NCBI RefSeq assembly: GCF_012985205.1
Contig: NZ_JABEKS010000002.1
Span: 518,480-582,479 of the forward strand
From: Planctomonas sp. JC2975
Lineage (GTDB): Bacteria > Actinomycetota > Actinomycetes > Actinomycetales > Microbacteriaceae
Direction: 5' to 3'
Length of the DNA stretch: 64,000 nucleotides
The position numbers were made by a program, and so were the translations under genes. The notes beneath the pieces are model-generated. The model was not told the DNA's origin. It made no database searches and saw only the letters and a list, made by a program, of their open reading frames with translations. Positions 3,495-11,336 of this stretch are shown piece by piece; the first letter of the stretch is position 1, and the number at the start of each line of letters is the position of its first letter.

Positions 3495-5792
3495 ATGGAA
3501 GGTCCAGAAATCAAGTTCGCCGAGGCCGTTCTCGACAACGGCCGCTTCGGCACCCGCACGATCCGGTTCGAAACCGGTCGTCTGGCGCAGCAGGCGCAGG
3601 GCGCCGTCGCCGCCTACCTCGACGAGGAGACCATGCTGCTGAGCGCGACGAGCGCCAGCAAGCACCCGAAAGACAACTTCGACTTCTTCCCGCTGACGGT
3701 CGACGTCGAGGAGCGGTCGTACGCGGCCGGCAAGATCCCCGGCTCGTTCTTCCGTCGTGAGGGACGTCCGTCGACGGAGGCCATCCTGGTCTGCCGTCTC
3801 ATCGACCGTCCGCTGCGTCCCTCGTTCGTCGAGGGCCTCCGCAACGAGGTGCAGATCGTCATCACGGTGCTGAGCATCGCGCCGGATGAGTTCTACGACG
3901 CACTCGCGATCAACGCGGCATCCGCATCCACCCAGATCTCGGGCCTGCCGTTCTCCGGCCCGATCGCCGGCGTGCGCCTGGCGTTCATCCCGGGCAACGG
4001 TGAGCACGATGACCAGTGGGTCGCGTTCCCGAAGGCCTCGCAGCTCGAGCACGCCGTGTTCGATCTCGTCGTCGCCGGCCGCGTGCTCACGAACGCCGAC
4101 GGCTCAGAGGGCGATGTCGCGATCATGATGGTCGAGGCCGAGGCCACCGAGCACAGCTGGGACCTCATCCAGGCCGGCGCCACGAAGCCGAGCGAGGACG
4201 TCGTCGCGAGCGGCCTCGAGGCCGCCAAGCCGTTCATCCGCCAGCTGGTGGGTGCGCAGACGGTGCTCGCGCAGCAGTCCGCGAAGGCCATCGCCGACTA
4301 CCCGGTGTTCCTGCCCTACTCGCAGGAGACCTACGACAACGTCGCCGGCCTCGCCTACGACGACCTGGTGAACGTGTACCAGATCGCCGACAAGATCGAG
4401 CGCCAGAACGCTGATGACGCACTCAAGGACCGCGTCAAGGTCGCCGTCGCCGAGAAGGTCGAGGCCGGCGCCCTGCCTGCCGAGACGCTCGAGCAGTTCT
4501 CCGCCGCCTACAAGTCGGTCTCGAAGGTCGTCATGCGCGGCCGCGTGCTCCGCGAGGGCATCCGCATCGACGGACGTGGTCTGCGCGACATCCGTCCGCT
4601 CGACGCCGAGGTGCAGGTCATCCCGCGCGTGCACGGATCGGCCATCTTCCAGCGCGGAGAGACCCAGATCCTGGGTGTCACCACGCTGAACATGCTCAAG
4701 ATGGAGCAGCAGATCGACTCGCTGTCGCCTGTCACCAAGAAGCGGTACCTGCACCACTACAACTTCCCGCCCTACTCGACCGGTGAGACCGGTCGTGTCG
4801 GCAGCCCGAAGCGTCGCGAGATCGGCCACGGATTCCTGGCCGAGCGCGCGCTCGTGCCGGTGCTGCCGACGCGCGAGGAGTTCCCGTACGCCATCCGCCA
4901 GGTGTCGGAGGCGCTCGGATCCAACGGATCGACGTCGATGGGCTCGGTCTGCGCGTCCACCCTGTCCCTGCTGAACGCGGGTGTGCCGCTGCGCGCTCCG
5001 GTCGCCGGTATCGCGATGGGCCTCATCTCCGACACGGTCGACGGTGAGACCCGCTACGCGGCGCTCACCGACATCCTCGGTGCCGAGGACGCCCTGGGCG
5101 ACATGGACTTCAAGGTCGCCGGCACGAGCGAGTTCGTCACCGCCATCCAGCTCGACACCAAGCTCGACGGCATCCCGTCGTCGGTCCTGGCAGGCGCGCT
5201 GCAGCAGGCGAAGGATGCCCGCACCACGATCCTGTCCGTGCTCAACGCCGCCATCGACACGCCGGACGAGATGGCGCCCACCGCGCCGCGCGTCATCAGC
5301 GTGCAGATCCCGGTCGACAAGATCGGCGAGCTGATCGGGCCGAAGGGCAAGACGATCAACGCGATCCAGGACGAGACGGGCGCCGAGATCTCCATCGAGG
5401 AGGACGGCACCGTCTACATCGGCGCGACCGACGGACCGTCGGCCGAGGCCGCTCGTGCGCAGGTGAACGCGATCGCCAACCCGACCAACCCCGAGGTGGG
5501 CGACCAGTTCCTCGGAACGGTCGTGAAGATCGCCACGTTCGGCGCCTTCATCTCCCTCCTGCCCGGCCGTGACGGCCTGCTGCACATCTCCGAGGTGCGC
5601 AAGCTCGCCGGCGGCAAGCGGGTCGAGAACGTCGAGGACGTGCTCTCCGTCGGCCAGAAGATCCTGGTGGAGATCACCAAGGTCGACGACCGCGGCAAGC
5701 TGTCGCTGCAGCCGGTCATCGCCGAGGAGACGGCGGAAGCCGACGCTCCCGCCGAGTCCGCTGAGGGCTCAACGGAGACCGTCGAGGCCTGA
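3495..5792 (+). CDS. pnp: Polyribonucleotide nucleotidyltransferase (PNPase)
   Basis: A 765-residue phosphorolytic 3'-to-5' exoribonuclease that forms trimers and degrades RNA with inorganic phosphate, releasing nucleoside diphosphates. Two RNase PH-like halves are visible (residues ~15-240 and ~345-580, the second with [30 protein letters not shown] and the catalytic-site motif [17 protein letters not shown]). These are followed by a KH domain ([19 protein letters not shown], ~605-660) and an S1 domain ([20 protein letters not shown], ~672-745). The usual length is ~720-760. The ATG follows SD AAAGGAGAAG, so upstream in-frame ATGs are not used. In many actinobacteria rpsO precedes pnp; here it does not. 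Confidence 0.97.
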
Positions 5793-5812
5793 TCGCAGAC
5801 ACTCGCATTGCA

Positions 5813-5851
5813 CGACGCGCCCGCCGCGGCTTCGGCCCGGCGGGCGCGTCG
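5813..5851 (+). terminator. Strong hairpin terminator after pnp
   Basis: A perfect 14-bp stem, CGACGCGCCCGCCG (5813-5826) pairing with 5838-5851, with an 11-nt loop, lies 21 bp after the pnp stop codon. There is no clear run of T after it (TCGTTCG), as is usual for high-GC actinobacterial terminators. Confidence 0.8.
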
Positions 5852-6162
5852 TCGTTCGAGCACTGATCGCTTCCGTCCAGGTCGGCGACAGACCGCCAGT
5901 GACGCCTCCGGCCGGGGCAGCTGCCGATCGCGACGGCACCGATCGGATCGACGCGCACGCGGCAGCGCGATCCGTACCAGAGCAAGGTTGCGCGAAATGC
6001 GTGTCGCACCCGCGTCTGAGCGACATTTGCCAAAGATTTGATAACGGTTCAATCGTTTCGACGGGGTGACGGACGGGCTGTCCACTACGCTCGCTCACAT
6101 CAGGTGTGATGTGGCATCCCGCGTCACATCGGCTCGGGGGGGCTGAGGAGCTGGAGGGGTCA
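5852..6162. other. Gene-free stretch between pnp terminator and AKR-like gene
   Basis: No ORF with convincing coding character is seen here. A relatively AT-rich patch (about 6020-6062) and a TACGCT hexamer (6086-6091) probably form the promoter of the next gene. Just after it lies a perfect inverted repeat, CACATCA-GGTG-TGATGTG (6096-6113), at or near the expected transcription start. It could be a protein-binding site or an RNA hairpin ahead of the GGAGCTGGAGGGG Shine-Dalgarno region. Confidence 0.5.
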
Positions 6163-7209
6163 ATGGCGCAGCCGTTTTCCGTGCGCGCACGGGAACACAT
6201 CAACGGGGGAGAGACCGGAATCGGACCGGTCTTCGACGCACCGGTAGTTCCCGTGGACTACGAGGGAGCGGCGACGGCGCCGCTCTCGATCGTGGCGCCG
6301 CGACGACTTGGCGAGACCGACCTCGCCGTGTACTCCCTTGCTCTGGGCACGGCCGCGCTGGCCGAGGCCGCGGATGTCGACGCGGCACAGGCGGTTCTCG
6401 ACCGTTACGTGCACCTCGGCGGCAACTTCATCGTCACCTCAGACGCGCACGCGCGTGGTCTCGGCAACGCCATCGTCGGCGGCTGGATGCACCGGCGCGA
6501 CGTGCGCGGCAGCATGATCATCGATCTGCGGATCGGCGCGGGGGAGGAGAGCCCAGGTCTCGGGCAGGTCAACGTGATCCGTGCCGTCGAAGCGGCTCTG
6601 CGTCGTCTCGGCACCGACCACGTCGACGTGCTGACCCTCGAGGGACCCGATCCGCACGTCGCGCTCTCAGACACCCTCGCCACCGTGGAGTGGCTGATCG
6701 ACACCGGAAAAGTCCGCCACGTCGGCTTCTCCGGCTTCTCAGCGGAGAGCCTCATGGAAGCCCGTGTGCTCTCTTCGTCCGGCCTTCCAAAGGTCGCCGC
6801 GATCGAGGTGCCGTACAGCCTGATGAATCGCGGTGTGTTCGAGGGCGATCTCCGCATCGTCACGGCCGCCCAGTCGCTCGGCGTGCTGCCCACCAGGCCG
6901 CTCGCGCACGGCTATCTCGCCGGTGCCTACCGATCGCGCTCCGACCTGGATGCCGGTGCTCGCCTCGCAGGTGTCGGCGGCTATCTCGGACGCCGCGGCC
7001 ACCGCGTGCGTCAGGTGCTCGATCGGGTCGCTGCCGAGCACTCGTGCAGCATGGCCACCATCGCCATCGCGTGGCTTCTCGCCAAGCGTGGAGTGGTCGC
7101 GCCCGTCGTGAATGTCGGGTCGGCCGGAGAGGTCGATGACCTCATGGCGGCGTGCAGCGTCAGCCTGAGCCGCACCGACATGCTCGAGCTCGACCGCGCT
7201 TCCGAATAG
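6163..7209 (+). CDS. Aldo/keto reductase fold protein lacking the catalytic tetrad
   Basis: A 348-residue protein with an aldo/keto-reductase barrel of the potassium-channel-beta/oxidoreductase type: RRLGETDLAVYSLALGTAAL at ~47, GGNFI at ~86, EAALRRLGTDHVDVL at ~143, VRHVGFSG at ~188 and IAIAWLLAKRGVVAPVVNVGSAGEVDDL near the end. At the four tetrad positions it has Val91 for Asp, His96 for Tyr, Arg123 for Lys and Glu160 for His, so ordinary NADPH-dependent carbonyl reduction seems unlikely. A binding or regulatory role is inferred. The first ~45 residues are a low-complexity extension. The start at 6163 follows a GGAGG-like site; an upstream in-frame ATG lacks one. Confidence 0.85.
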   Translation: MAQPFSVRAREHINGGETGIGPVFDAPVVPVDYEGAATAPLSIVAPRRLGETDLAVYSLALGTAALAEAADVDAAQAVLDRYVHLGGNFIVTSDAHARGLGNAIVGGWMHRRDVRGSMIIDLRIGAGEESPGLGQVNVIRAVEAALRRLGTDHVDVLTLEGPDPHVALSDTLATVEWLIDTGKVRHVGFSGFSAESLMEARVLSSSGLPKVAAIEVPYSLMNRGVFEGDLRIVTAAQSLGVLPTRPLAHGYLAGAYRSRSDLDAGARLAGVGGYLGRRGHRVRQVLDRVAAEHSCSMATIAIAWLLAKRGVVAPVVNVGSAGEVDDLMAACSVSLSRTDMLELDRASE

Positions 7210-7217
7210 GTCCCCGC

Positions 7218-7796
7218 TCAGGGGAGCAGACGCTCCAGAGCGCGATGGAGAGCGGCATCCGTCGCTGCTGGGTCCGCGACCGATCCACCGCCGAAGGCAC
7301 CATCGCGAGCGAGGAGCAGATCATCCGCCGCCTTTTCGGGGGAACCGGCTCGCGCCTGCGTGAAGAGGTCGACCAGCGTGGTGCGCAGCCAGGATCGCCA
7401 TTCGGCGACGGCCGGGCCGACAGGGCCGTCCGCGTCAAGCTGGGCGGCGGCGGCGTTGATGAACGGACAGCCGTGGTATCCGGGGCGCCGCGACTCGGAC
7501 GCGAAATCGTCGACGATCGCGCGCAGCACACCGAGGGCATCACCGAGGGTCTCGCGATCCGCCTCGACGCTCTCACGAGCGCGCTGCGCGCGGCCGGTGA
7601 CGTAGGCGGCGATCAGGATGTCCTTCGAGCGGTAGTGCTTGTAGAAGGTGGCCTTCGTGACGTGCGACTGGGCGATGATCCGGTCGACGCCGACTGTGTG
7701 GACGCCTTCGTCGTAGAACAGGCGGTCAGCCGTCGCCAGAATCTTCAGCTTGGCCGGCGCCGGCGGGCGCGTGATGACGGCACTCTGCTCGGGCAT
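7218..7796 (-). CDS. TetR/AcrR family transcriptional regulator
   Basis: A 192-residue protein with an N-terminal helix-turn-helix of TetR type: ILATADRLFYDEGVHTVGVDRIIAQSHVTKATFYKHYRSKDILIAAYV (~19-66), including the conserved KATFYKHYxSK recognition helix end. The rest is a ligand/dimer domain with YHGCPFINAAAAQ, common in a subgroup that responds to oxidants or xenobiotics. The start is set by an SD (GAGGAGA) directly upstream on the minus strand. A clear TATAAT hexamer sits ~65 bp upstream on that strand. It ends 8 bp from the convergent AKR-like gene and diverges from the M16 protease gene. Its target is not known. Confidence 0.9.
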   Translation of the reverse strand: MPEQSAVITRPPAPAKLKILATADRLFYDEGVHTVGVDRIIAQSHVTKATFYKHYRSKDILIAAYVTGRAQRARESVEADRETLGDALGVLRAIVDDFASESRRPGYHGCPFINAAAAQLDADGPVGPAVAEWRSWLRTTLVDLFTQARAGSPEKAADDLLLARDGAFGGGSVADPAATDAALHRALERLLP

Positions 7797-8030
7797 CCGG
7801 TTCTCCTCAACTCGCTGCGCGCACGTACTCCACGACGAGTCCCGTCGGAGATTGGTTGCAATTATATAGGGGTAGACAGTGATGTTTGTCCTCAAGAATG
7901 TGGACAGGTCATCCGCAGCAATTCCCACGGATGATCGACGCATCCGCGTACGGCCGATCGGATGCGGATCGATGACATCGGTCGTGCTGATGATCCTCGA
8001 TTCGACGGCGGTGTGGATAGGGTGGGAGTG

Positions 8031-9395
8031 ATGAACGGCGCTGTTGACCTCCCACTCGACCGTGCCGATCTGACGTTCGCAGCGTCCGGCGATGCTCTGG
8101 TCTCCCGCACCATCCTGCCAAGCGGCGTGCGCGTGCTCAGCGAGCGCGTGCCCGGCGTGCGAAGCGCGACCATCGGGTTCTGGTTCGGCGTCGGCTCCCG
8201 CGACGAGACCGGCCTCCTTCCCGGGCCCAGCGGCCACGCCGCGAGCTTCGGTTCCACGCACTTCCTCGAGCACCTTCTGTTCAAGGGGACGGCGCAGCGC
8301 ACGGCATTCGACATCGCGATCGCCTTCGACGCCGTCGGGGGCGAGCACAACGCACTCACCGCCAAGGAACAGACCTGCTACTACGCCAAGGTGCAGGACC
8401 GCGACCTCACCATGGCCACCGAGGTGCTGGCCGACATGGTGACGTCGTCCCTTCTGGACTCGACCGAATTCGAGAACGAGCGCGGCGTCATCCTCGAAGA
8501 ACTCGCGATGGCCGAGGACGACCCCGCCGATGTGGTGAACGAGCGTTTCTTCGCAGCAGTACTCGGCGATCACCCCATCGCCCGGCCGATCGGCGGCAAC
8601 CGCGACACCATCAACGCTGCGACCAGGGATGCCGTCTGGCAGCACTACCGCGCCAGCTACCGTCCGCAGGACCTCGTGGTCTCAGCTGCGGGTGCCGTCG
8701 ACCATGCCCGGCTCGTGGCCGACGTCGAGCGATCGCTGGCCGCAGGCGGATGGCCGATGACGAATGCCGTCGCCCCCGTCGCCCGACGCGGCATCGACTC
8801 CGCCCAGCTGACCGGGGTATCGGGAATCGTCACGGCGCGTCGTCCCATCGAGCAAGCGCACGTGGTGATCGGCGCCCCGTCGCTGCGAGCGGGCGACGAC
8901 GCGCGCATCACGATGGGCGTCCTCAACTCGGTGCTGGGCGGTGGGATGTCGAGCCGCCTGTTCCAGGAGGTACGGGAGAAGCGGGGGCTGGCGTACTCCG
9001 TCTACTCCTTCGCCGCCGGATACTCCGACACCGGGGTCTTCGGCATGTATGGCGCGTGCGCGCCGCAGAAGGCGCGCTCGGTGGCCGGCATCATGATCGA
9101 TCAGCTGCGAACGCTCGCCTCCGACGGCATCACTCACGACGAGCTGGCCAGGGCGGTCGGCCAGCTCTCCGGCGGTTCCGCGCTGGCGCTGGAGGACTCC
9201 GACACCCGGATGACGCGGCTCGGCCGATCCGAGCTGAGCACCGGCGAGTTCGTCGACCTCGACGAGACGCTGCGCAGGCTCGCGCTGGTCACCGCCGACG
9301 ACGTGAGAGACCTCGCCGCCGAGATCGCAGCGCAACCCCTGACCATTGCCGCAGTCGGAGCCGTCGATGATGACGTGTTCTCCGGCCTTCTCTGA
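8031..9395 (+). CDS. M16 family zinc metallopeptidase
   Basis: A 454-residue single-chain insulinase/processing-peptidase-like protein. The inverted zinc motif HxxEH is present as THFLEHLLFKGT (~residue 78-85), and the distal Glu lies in FENERGVILEELAMAEDDP (~150). The C-terminal half has the R/Y pair region SSRLFQEVREKRGLAYSVYSF that contacts substrate. Members next to pnp in actinobacteria and Firmicutes are processing proteases of unknown natural substrate. TAGGGT at 8018-8023, seven bases before the ATG, suggests a leaderless transcript. The insert LLPGPSGHAASFGS between the first strand and the zinc motif is longer than usual for the family. Confidence 0.93.
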   Translation: MNGAVDLPLDRADLTFAASGDALVSRTILPSGVRVLSERVPGVRSATIGFWFGVGSRDETGLLPGPSGHAASFGSTHFLEHLLFKGTAQRTAFDIAIAFDAVGGEHNALTAKEQTCYYAKVQDRDLTMATEVLADMVTSSLLDSTEFENERGVILEELAMAEDDPADVVNERFFAAVLGDHPIARPIGGNRDTINAATRDAVWQHYRASYRPQDLVVSAAGAVDHARLVADVERSLAAGGWPMTNAVAPVARRGIDSAQLTGVSGIVTARRPIEQAHVVIGAPSLRAGDDARITMGVLNSVLGGGMSSRLFQEVREKRGLAYSVYSFAAGYSDTGVFGMYGACAPQKARSVAGIMIDQLRTLASDGITHDELARAVGQLSGGSALALEDSDTRMTRLGRSELSTGEFVDLDETLRRLALVTADDVRDLAAEIAAQPLTIAAVGAVDDDVFSGLL

Positions 9396-10592: not shown

Positions 10593-11336
10593 ATGACCAT
10601 TCGTGTGGCCGTCGTCGGCGCGACCGGAAGGCTCGGCAGCGTCGCGGTCGACCTCATCGAGTCAGCAGACGACCTCGAGCTCGTCGCCGCCCTGGGCTCC
10701 AGGAACGACCTCGCCGACATGCTCGGCTCCGACGACGCACCGTCCGACGTCGTGTTGGATGTGACGCTTCCCGCAGTGAGCCCCACGGTCGTCGACTTCG
10801 CGCTGGATGCCGGTCGCAACGTCGTCGTGGGAACATCCGGCTGGTCGGCGACTCGGCTGGCACCGCTCAAGTCCCGGCTCAGGGATCTGCCCGAAAGAGG
10901 CGTCATCGTCGTGCCCAACTTCTCGCTCGGATCCGCACTCGGCACGGCCTTCGCTGCGGCAGCCGCCCGCTACTTCGACTCGATCGAGATCGTCGAATCC
11001 CACGCATCGTCCAAGATCGACTCCCCGTCCGGCACCGCCGTCCGCACCGCCGAACTGATCGCTGAGGCGCGTGAGGAGCGGGGACCGGTGGCCGCGCCGC
11101 ACACCGATCAGCGTGCGCGCGGTCAGCAGGTCGCGGGTGTTCCCGTGCACAGCCTCCGGCTGAACGGGGTCGTCGCCAAGCAGAGCGTCATCCTCGGCGG
11201 GGCGGGGGAGACGCTGACGATCACGCATGACACCACGGACTCGCGGGCCTATGCGGCCGGCATCCTGCATGCACTGCGCTCCGCGCCGGCGGCCCGTGGC
11301 CTGACGGTCGGTCTCGACCGGCTGCTCGACCTGTGA
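10593..11336 (+). CDS. dapB: 4-hydroxy-tetrahydrodipicolinate reductase
   Basis: A 247-residue enzyme of the lysine/meso-diaminopimelate pathway; it reduces the product of DapA with NAD(P)H in the cytoplasm. The Rossmann motif VVGATGRLGSV is at ~6-15, the loop VVGTSGW at ~75, and the active-site stretch HASSKIDSPSGTAVRTAE at ~132-150 has the catalytic His/Lys and the SGTA substrate loop. Length and motifs fit the actinobacterial type. TATCGT (10581-10586), six bases before the ATG, points to a leaderless transcript. The next gene overlaps its stop codon by 4 bp. dapA lies 2.2 kb downstream, and dapF further on. Confidence 0.95.
   Translation: MTIRVAVVGATGRLGSVAVDLIESADDLELVAALGSRNDLADMLGSDDAPSDVVLDVTLPAVSPTVVDFALDAGRNVVVGTSGWSATRLAPLKSRLRDLPERGVIVVPNFSLGSALGTAFAAAAARYFDSIEIVESHASSKIDSPSGTAVRTAELIAEAREERGPVAAPHTDQRARGQQVAGVPVHSLRLNGVVAKQSVILGGAGETLTITHDTTDSRAYAAGILHALRSAPAARGLTVGLDRLLDL

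What the first reader, a model, noticed from the sequence alone, without database searches (positions are those of the whole stretch)
6163..7209. Aldo/keto-reductase fold with all four catalytic residues replaced
The barrel motifs of the family are intact, but at the tetrad positions the protein has Val91 (Asp), His96 (Tyr), Arg123 (Lys) and Glu160 (His). Losing all four while keeping a full-length, in-frame, well-expressed-looking gene points to a pseudoenzyme or a protein with a different chemistry or partner. Its N-terminal ~45 residues are also atypical. Nothing near it explains the role: the TetR gene and the M16 protease lie beside it.
Basis: partly seen in the sequence, partly recalled or inferred. 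Interest (0 to 1): 0.72.

Follow-up and report, generated by a model that had tools for sequence, protein, structure and literature searches.

The report
Reductase-fold protein lacking all catalytic residues
A soil bacterium's protein is built like a common carbonyl-reducing enzyme but has replaced all four of the amino acids that do the chemistry; nearly all its close relatives share this and natural selection keeps the gene intact, so it likely works as a binding or regulatory protein instead of an enzyme.

Summary
Window 6163-7209 encodes a complete aldo/keto-reductase (AKR) barrel in which Asp-Tyr-Lys-His (D-Y-K-H) is Val91-His96-Arg123-Glu160. It is not misalignment: 12 of 13 distinct paralogues in the same genome read D-Y-K-H in the same columns, the other D-Y-gap-H. 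It is not a local mutation: all 18 homologues found at 65% identity or more lost D, K and H, and 17 of 18 also Tyr. Orthologues at the same locus (tetR, M16 and dapB downstream, pnp often upstream) mostly keep D-Y-K-H: 80 of 88 loci.

The loss recurs: H-F/Y-R-D in a Microbacterium-like genus (gene in 287 of 295 genomes; none of 80 loci read is D-Y-K-H), D-V-T-R in a third clade, S-Y-K-D in tandem copies. The single-copy tetrad-less genes are under purifying selection (dN/dS 0.03-0.18). In this clade the lost conserved sites cluster at the barrel mouth, and positions aligned with nicotinamide contacts change (G191, E215).

Best reading: a conserved AKR pseudoenzyme, likely ligand- or partner-binding. 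Ligand and partner are unknown, nothing was assayed, and independent losses are favoured but not proven.

The parts
6163..7209 (+). AKR-fold gene without the catalytic tetrad (348 aa plus stop)
6163..6273 (+). N-terminal tail, residues 1-37, predicted disordered
   Evidence: pLDDT under 50; tail printed for relatives
6433..6435 (+). codon of Val91, at the position of the catalytic Asp
   Evidence: V in 19 of 19 non-redundant members of the clade
6448..6450 (+). codon of His96, at the position of the catalytic Tyr
   Evidence: H in 18 of 19, Y in 1
6529..6531 (+). codon of Arg123, at the position of the catalytic Lys
   Evidence: R 14, H 2, C 1, Q 1, V 1 of 19
6640..6642 (+). codon of Glu160, at the position of the catalytic His
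   Evidence: E 14, Q 4, D 1 of 19
6733..6735 (+). codon of Gly191, aligned with the Asn after Ser of AKRs (nicotinamide-amide contact, role recalled)
   Evidence: alignment to DepB; G in 19 of 19 here, 4 of 124 D-Y-K-H orthologues
6805..6807 (+). codon of Glu215, aligned with the Gln that contacts nicotinamide in AKRs (role recalled)
   Evidence: alignment to DepB; E 17, D 1, G 1 of 19 here; Q in 94 of 124 D-Y-K-H
3495..5792 (+). pnp (polynucleotide phosphorylase), upstream neighbour
   Evidence: Pfam RNase_PH, PNPase, KH, S1; start
7218..7796 (-). TetR-type regulator, convergent with the AKR gene
   Evidence: Pfam TetR_N; start codon chosen
7962..9395 (+). M16 peptidase ORF, downstream neighbour (start codon not refined)
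   Evidence: Pfam Peptidase_M16
10593..11336 (+). dapB, downstream neighbour
   Evidence: Pfam DapB_N and DapB_C

Best explanation
This AKR-fold protein, with all four catalytic residues replaced and the gene kept under purifying selection at a conserved locus, is likely a pseudoenzyme that would work by binding a ligand or partner instead of reducing carbonyls. Shown by sequence: orthologues at the locus usually carry D-Y-K-H, while the Humibacter lineage has replaced all four positions. Inferred: without the Tyr general acid, the Lys-Asp pair that tunes it and the His of the proton relay, carbonyl reduction is not catalysed, and the changed nicotinamide-contact positions (G191, E215) weaken productive NADPH binding. 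Inferred: the barrel mouth is rebuilt as a binding pocket or docking face; an Arg123-Glu160 pair here, and the nearly invariant Arg123-Asp160 pair of the Microbacterium-like clade, may form a new salt bridge in place of the old Asp-Lys one. Predicted role: a regulatory or sensing protein, as Kv-beta is an AKR that serves as a channel subunit. Ligand and partner are not identified.
For: All four residues replaced in a full-length, confident AKR barrel, with same-genome paralogues as alignment control. Clade-wide: 18 of 18 homologues at 65% identity or more lost D, K and H; 5 of 5 same-genus genomes hold the gene without internal stops. Purifying selection: dN/dS 0.105-0.182 in 8 pairs; AKR identity to G057 is 87%, equal to DapB. 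Conserved sites lost here lie at the barrel mouth: 12 of 22 versus 7 of 78 elsewhere, P 1.4e-5; without the tetrad 8 of 18 versus 7 of 78, P 0.001. Nicotinamide-contact positions changed: G191 in 19 of 19, position 215 no longer Gln in 19 of 19 (roles recalled). A second, Microbacterium-like clade with H-F/Y-R-D keeps R123 (127 of 128), D160 and D215 (126 of 128 each) nearly invariant and is also predicted to fold as a full barrel. Codeinone reductase with D51N, K86M or H119F had no detectable oxidation and only trace reduction (PMC8524200, passages).
Against: No activity, binding or expression was measured. Some AKRs with altered tetrads are active: AKR1D1 with Glu for His (PMC11354470), DRR with Pro and Met for His and Lys (PMC8524200). 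P0009 keeps Tyr96 and 24 of 80 Microbacterium-like loci keep Tyr (H-Y-R-D). R123 and E160 are among the less conserved core sites of this clade (entropy rank 270 and 246 of 303), which weakens a strict salt-bridge or new-active-site story. In D-Y-K-H orthologues 215 is not always Gln (94 of 124) and 191 is N, D or H, so these contacts are not strictly fixed in the active form either. Barrel-mouth clustering is not significant in the D-V-T-R clade once the tetrad is left out (P 0.34). No partner or ligand is known.
Confidence: 0.6

Rival explanations
1. Re-tooled redox enzyme: NADPH still binds, and His96, Glu160 and Arg123 support another reduction (C=C, C=N or a quinone), in the manner of AKR1D1 or DRR.
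For: The tetrad His becomes Glu, Asp, Asn, Gln, Arg or Ala in several lineages of the group, most often an acid; Glu at this place makes AKR1D1 a double-bond reductase (PMC11354470, passage); DRR works with Pro and Met there (PMC8524200). Tandem S-Y-K-D copies keep Tyr and Lys.
Against: DRR keeps Tyr and AKR1D1 keeps Tyr and Lys (recalled); this clade lost both. Positions aligned with nicotinamide contacts changed as well. E160 is Q in 4 of 19 and R123 is replaced in 5 of 19.
Confidence: 0.22
2. New non-redox active site: the barrel mouth (His, Arg and the two acids at 160 and 215) binds a metal or an anion and catalyses another reaction.
For: Both this clade (H96, R123, E160, E215) and the Microbacterium-like one (H91, R123, D160, D215) place a His, an Arg and two acids at the mouth; in the latter R123, D160 and D215 are nearly invariant.
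Against: In this clade R123 and E160 vary, and G215 occurs. No metal or ligand evidence.
Confidence: 0.12
3. On history only: one ancient tetrad-less paralogue, kept in Humibacter, the Microbacterium-like genus and the D-V-T-R clade while others kept the D-Y-K-H copy, instead of several independent losses.
For: N137, G191 and H249 are shared by all three clades and rare in D-Y-K-H. AU tests on the AKR alignment do not reject one clade (p 0.885, 0.314, 0.391, 0.386); in the quick tree the joined topology scored better.
Against: The careful tree nests this clade in a 19-row Leifsonia-type group (96/98) next to D-Y-G-N and S-Y-K-N rows, apart from the others. Neighbouring proteins place Humibacter in a 10-row clade at 100/100 with D-Y-K-H genomes, away from the Microbacterium-like rows (AU p 0.09). 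No fetched locus held both a D-Y-K-H copy and a V-H, H-F or D-V type copy. N137 also occurs in DepB, so it may be an old state.
Confidence: 0.25
4. Decaying gene with no function.
For: The gene group can be lost: 8 of 295 Microbacterium-like genomes gave no match at 1e-60.
Against: dN/dS 0.105-0.182 and intact frames; replacements shared across the clade.
Confidence: 0.03

Closest known systems
DepB and 7utf (AKRs linked to deoxynivalenol conversion), nearest solved structures
   Same: Fold, 25-26% identity, best sequence and structure matches
   Different: They align Asp, Tyr, Lys, His or near equivalents where this protein has V, H, R, E (alignment); different genes and roles
D-Y-K-H orthologues of other Microbacteriaceae (e.g. 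P0020, Leifsonia P0027)
   Same: Same gene position, about 50-56% identity for the nearest, similar tail
   Different: Tetrad intact; I found no functional study of them
Microbacterium-like H-F/Y-R-D orthologues (e.g. P0082)
   Same: Same locus where read, tetrad lost, predicted same fold, purifying selection
   Different: 44-45% identity, other replacements, part keep Tyr; probably separate losses
Kv-beta subunits (AKR6)
   Different: Kv-beta binds NADP(H) tightly and is a functional, slow AKR (same passages); no channel is linked here
Glutamate-cysteine ligase modifier subunit (recalled; searches gave nothing usable)
   Same: AKR-like fold used as a regulatory subunit, as recalled
   Different: Eukaryotic; not compared here
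AKR1D1 and DRR, active AKRs with altered tetrads
   Same: Natural tetrad replacements
   Different: One or two positions changed and Tyr kept (AKR1D1 recalled); here all four

Membership tests
Aldo/keto reductase superfamily as fold and homology group (PF00248) | Significant match to the family profile over the barrel | tested here: met
   150.4 bits against a cut-off of 24, residues 59-347
Aldo/keto reductase superfamily as fold and homology group (PF00248) | AKR (beta/alpha)8 barrel | tested here: met
Catalytic aldo/keto reductase | Asp-Tyr-Lys-His tetrad | tested here: not met
   V-H-R-E, paralogue control
Catalytic aldo/keto reductase | NADPH-dependent carbonyl reduction | not testable with these tools
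   needs an assay; nicotinamide-contact positions altered
AKR1D1-type double-bond reductase | Glu for His with Tyr and Lys kept (Tyr/Lys part recalled) | tested here: not met
   Glu160 present, but Tyr is His and Lys is Arg
Kv-beta (TIGR01293) | Curated family score | tested here: not met
   66.9 bits against a cut-off of 365.4
Pseudoenzyme | Homologue of an enzyme, catalytic motif absent from the sequence | tested here: met
   definition as in the abstract start of PMC10211241
Pseudoenzyme | Kept by selection, not decaying | tested here: met
   dN/dS 0.105-0.182
Pseudoenzyme | No catalytic activity | not testable with these tools
   needs an assay

The most novel reading that the evidence does not exclude
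One ordinary reductase gene, fixed at the same chromosomal place, was turned into a non-redox binding protein several times over in one bacterial family: in Humibacter, in a whole Microbacterium-like genus, in the D-V-T-R clade, and partly in tandem copies. The changes go the same way (an acid at the His position in several lineages, Gly191, His249), so the same new ligand or partner pulled each lineage to the same rebuilt pocket.
Probability: 0.33. Interest if true: 0.78.

Novelty: new variant of a known kind. Interest (0 to 1): 0.57.

Why it matters
Database names for these proteins are 'aldo/keto reductase' or 'aryl-alcohol dehydrogenase-like predicted oxidoreductase'; for Humibacter and a large Microbacterium-like genus that name is probably wrong about function. 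If the inactivations are independent, the locus is a natural replicate experiment: intact and tetrad-less versions of one gene, at one place, in related bacteria. It would let one ask directly what a protein gains when catalysis goes, and whether a non-catalytic role came first. My searches for an AKR pseudoenzyme listed no bacterial one (titles shown of 54 and of 40 papers, one unrelated paper, none); most subscription papers are not held in that library.

Tried and rejected
Misalignment: rejected, because same-genome paralogues and orthologues put D-Y-K-H in the same columns and the model places the four residues at strand ends of the barrel. Local mutation or decay: rejected by clade-wide sharing and dN/dS. 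A role read from the neighbours: not possible, the same neighbours flank D-Y-K-H versions. Promoter and terminator scan of 5700-8100 found none, which says little for an actinobacterium. Lineage-paired test of His160 loss against G191: only 2 independent pairs on starred branches, cannot reach significance. AU tests on the AKR alignment do not reject a single origin. Paper searches for the glutamate-cysteine ligase modifier subunit and for nicotinamide-contact residues gave nothing usable.

Limits of the counts: 90 genomes other than the window's had a best hit of about 365 bits or more; 89 were fetched at first, G111 had been missed and was added last. The other 59 of 150 genomes were not looked at for decayed copies. 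pnp was found within the fetched stretch in 56 of 90 loci, M16 in 76, dapB in 81; some stretches end at contig ends. Of 287 Microbacterium-like genomes with the gene, 80 loci were read (30 best, 20 middle, 30 from 40 hand-picked, mostly low-scoring genomes); database proteins come from capped lists. Of the 8 genomes without a match at 1e-60, 6 gave weaker matches with another query at 1e-30. Choices of mine: non-redundancy at 90% (97% for this clade); 'barrel mouth' residues picked by eye from the strand ends; tetrad columns and neighbours left out of the AKR trees; the non-D-Y-K-H rows P0064 (D-Y-R-A) and P0038 (same protein as L069), two further rows and most D-Y-K-H rows left out of the 57-row tree.

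Full report

THE CLADE SHARES THE LOSS. The search found 481 homologues and listed 120. In the alignment of these with the query (121 rows), 76 read D-Y-K-H. The 18 homologues at 65% identity or more all have V91 and lack K123 and H160; 17 of 18 lack Tyr96. In 19 non-redundant members including the query: V91 19; H96 18, Y 1; R123 14, H 2, C 1, Q 1, V 1; E160 14, Q 4, D 1. All 5 genomes held for the genus carry the gene without internal stops.

ORTHOLOGUES MOSTLY KEEP D-Y-K-H. A profile search of 150 genomes of the family hit 130 at 1e-60. I fetched the loci of the 90 genomes (the window's aside) whose best hit reached about 365 bits. In 88 of 90 at least one of pnp, tetR, M16 or dapB lies nearby; pnp was found in 56, M16 in 76, dapB in 81. 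Tetrads at the 88 loci: D-Y-K-H 80, D-F-K-H 2, D-V-T-R 2, V-H-R-E or -Q 2, D-A-K-D 1, H-F-R-D 1; the two loci elsewhere are D-Y-K-H. Among 149 genomes of the order, the best hit outside the family was 374 bits, the level of paralogues, so the group looks family-specific.

THE LOSS RECURS. The genus of G106 is inferred to be Microbacterium, because a protein named Microbacterium azadirachtae matches G417 at 99%. There 287 of 295 genomes carry the gene, one match each at that threshold. Of 80 loci read, 49 are H-F-R-D, 24 H-Y-R-D, 7 other, none D-Y-K-H; of 113 database proteins, 106 are H-F-R-D, 6 H-Y-R-D, 1 Y-F-R-D. Among 128 non-redundant members R123 is 127, D160 126, D215 126. A third clade reads D-V-T-R (3 of 3 genomes of one genus and 6 of 6 further proteins), with one D-L-T-R protein. 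Seven loci carry a second AKR, S-Y-K-D, in tandem with the D-Y-K-H copy. Single rows read S-Y-K-N, D-Y-G-N, D-Y-R-A, D-A-K-D and D-Y-A-H, and three read D-D-K-H.

SELECTION. Nei-Gojobori dN/dS: 0.105-0.182 in 8 Humibacter pairs, 0.027-0.105 in 8 Microbacterium-like pairs, 0.049-0.090 in 3 D-V-T-R pairs, 0.054-0.212 in 9 D-Y-K-H pairs (a tenth had saturated dS). These are hand-picked pairs; the tandem S-Y-K-D copies were not tested. Against G057 the AKR is 87% identical, like DapB (87%); PNP is 94% and M16 83%. The protein is constrained, not decaying.

WHERE THE CHANGES LIE. Of 100 positions conserved in at least 85% of 124 non-redundant D-Y-K-H orthologues, the Humibacter clade lost 19, the Microbacterium-like clade 14, the D-V-T-R clade 14. 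At the barrel mouth the losses are 12 of 22 versus 7 of 78 elsewhere for Humibacter (P 1.4e-5; without the tetrad 8 of 18 versus 7 of 78, P 0.001), 8 of 22 versus 6 of 78 for the Microbacterium-like clade (P 0.002; without the tetrad P 0.03), 6 of 22 versus 8 of 78 for D-V-T-R (P 0.05; without the tetrad P 0.34). Three residues rare in D-Y-K-H orthologues are shared by the three clades: N137 (19 of 19, 123 of 128, 9 of 9; 12 of 124 in D-Y-K-H), G191 (19 of 19, 92 of 128, 9 of 9; 4 of 124), H249 (18 of 19, 127 of 128, 8 of 9; 9 of 124). DepB also has Asn at 137, so N137 may be an old state. By the alignment to DepB, 191 is the Asn after Ser and 215 the Gln that hold the nicotinamide amide in AKRs (role recalled). 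Among 64 tree rows G191 occurs in 31 of 38 rows without His160 and 1 of 26 with it; lineage-paired testing had too few pairs.

ONE LOSS OR SEVERAL. The careful AKR tree with the tandem copies nests the Humibacter clade in a 19-row Leifsonia-type group (96/98), next to D-Y-G-N and S-Y-K-N rows, while the H-F/Y-R-D, D-V-T-R and S-Y-K-D clades stand elsewhere; all four have long stems, 0.5-0.8. AU tests do not reject joining them (p 0.391 and 0.386; 0.314; 0.885 in the quick tree, where the joined topology scored better). The tree of neighbouring proteins puts Humibacter in a 10-row clade at 100/100 with D-Y-K-H genomes and one D-A-K-D genome, away from the Microbacterium-like rows (AU p 0.09 for joining); on a larger marker tree, loss of two or more tetrad residues needs at least 4 changes. 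Several losses are favoured, not proven.

HOW IT LIKELY WORKS. In AKRs Tyr is the acid/base, in relay with His for reduction and with Lys and Asp for oxidation; D51N, K86M or H119F in codeinone reductase left no detectable oxidation and only trace reduction (PMC8524200, passages). With all four replaced and nicotinamide-contact positions changed, carbonyl reduction is predicted to be absent (inference). What remains is a stable barrel with a rebuilt mouth and a disordered tail. I commit to a binding role, regulatory or sensing, by analogy with Kv-beta, an AKR that is also a channel subunit (PMC9317154, passages). Ligand and partner are unknown. The main rival is another reduction, on the model of AKR1D1, where Glu replaces His (PMC11354470, one passage), or of DRR (PMC8524200); against it, this clade also lost Tyr and Lys.

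NOVELTY. Searches for an AKR pseudoenzyme listed no bacterial one (listings only, capped at 20 titles of 54 and of 40 in the first two). A general review of pseudoenzymes (PMC10211241) holds neither 'aldo' nor 'reductase' in its text. The new points are the complete four-residue replacement, its preservation, and its recurrence at one syntenic locus. The kind (a pseudoenzyme on an enzyme fold) is known.

Noticed in passing
L067, L070, L077, L078, L094, L121, L127: A second AKR gene with tetrad S-Y-K-D lies in tandem, on the same strand, with the D-Y-K-H orthologue; the seven form one clade at 100/100. Tyr and Lys are kept, so it may be an active enzyme of other specificity, or a partner of the intact copy.
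   Followed up: partly
L062, L063, L074, L076, L106, L112, L115, L139: dapB is found near the AKR gene but no M16 peptidase match at 1e-15, so the order is not strictly fixed.
   Followed up: no
L053: tetR and M16 lie in the opposite orientation to the usual one next to the AKR gene, as after a local inversion.
   Followed up: no
window 7218-7796 (-): The TetR-type gene converges on the AKR stop codon with an 8-base gap; a tetR match in this place is found in 48 of 89 loci.
   Followed up: no
G193, G207, G253, G282, G325, G345, G368, G379 (genus of G106): No AKR match at 1e-60 with P0082; 6 of the 8 gave weaker matches with P0067. Possible gene loss or strong divergence.
   Followed up: partly
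L212, L215: Two Microbacterium-like orthologues read K-D-R-D and T-D-R-D: even the clade's usual H91 and F/Y96 are replaced, with Ser at 215.
   Followed up: no
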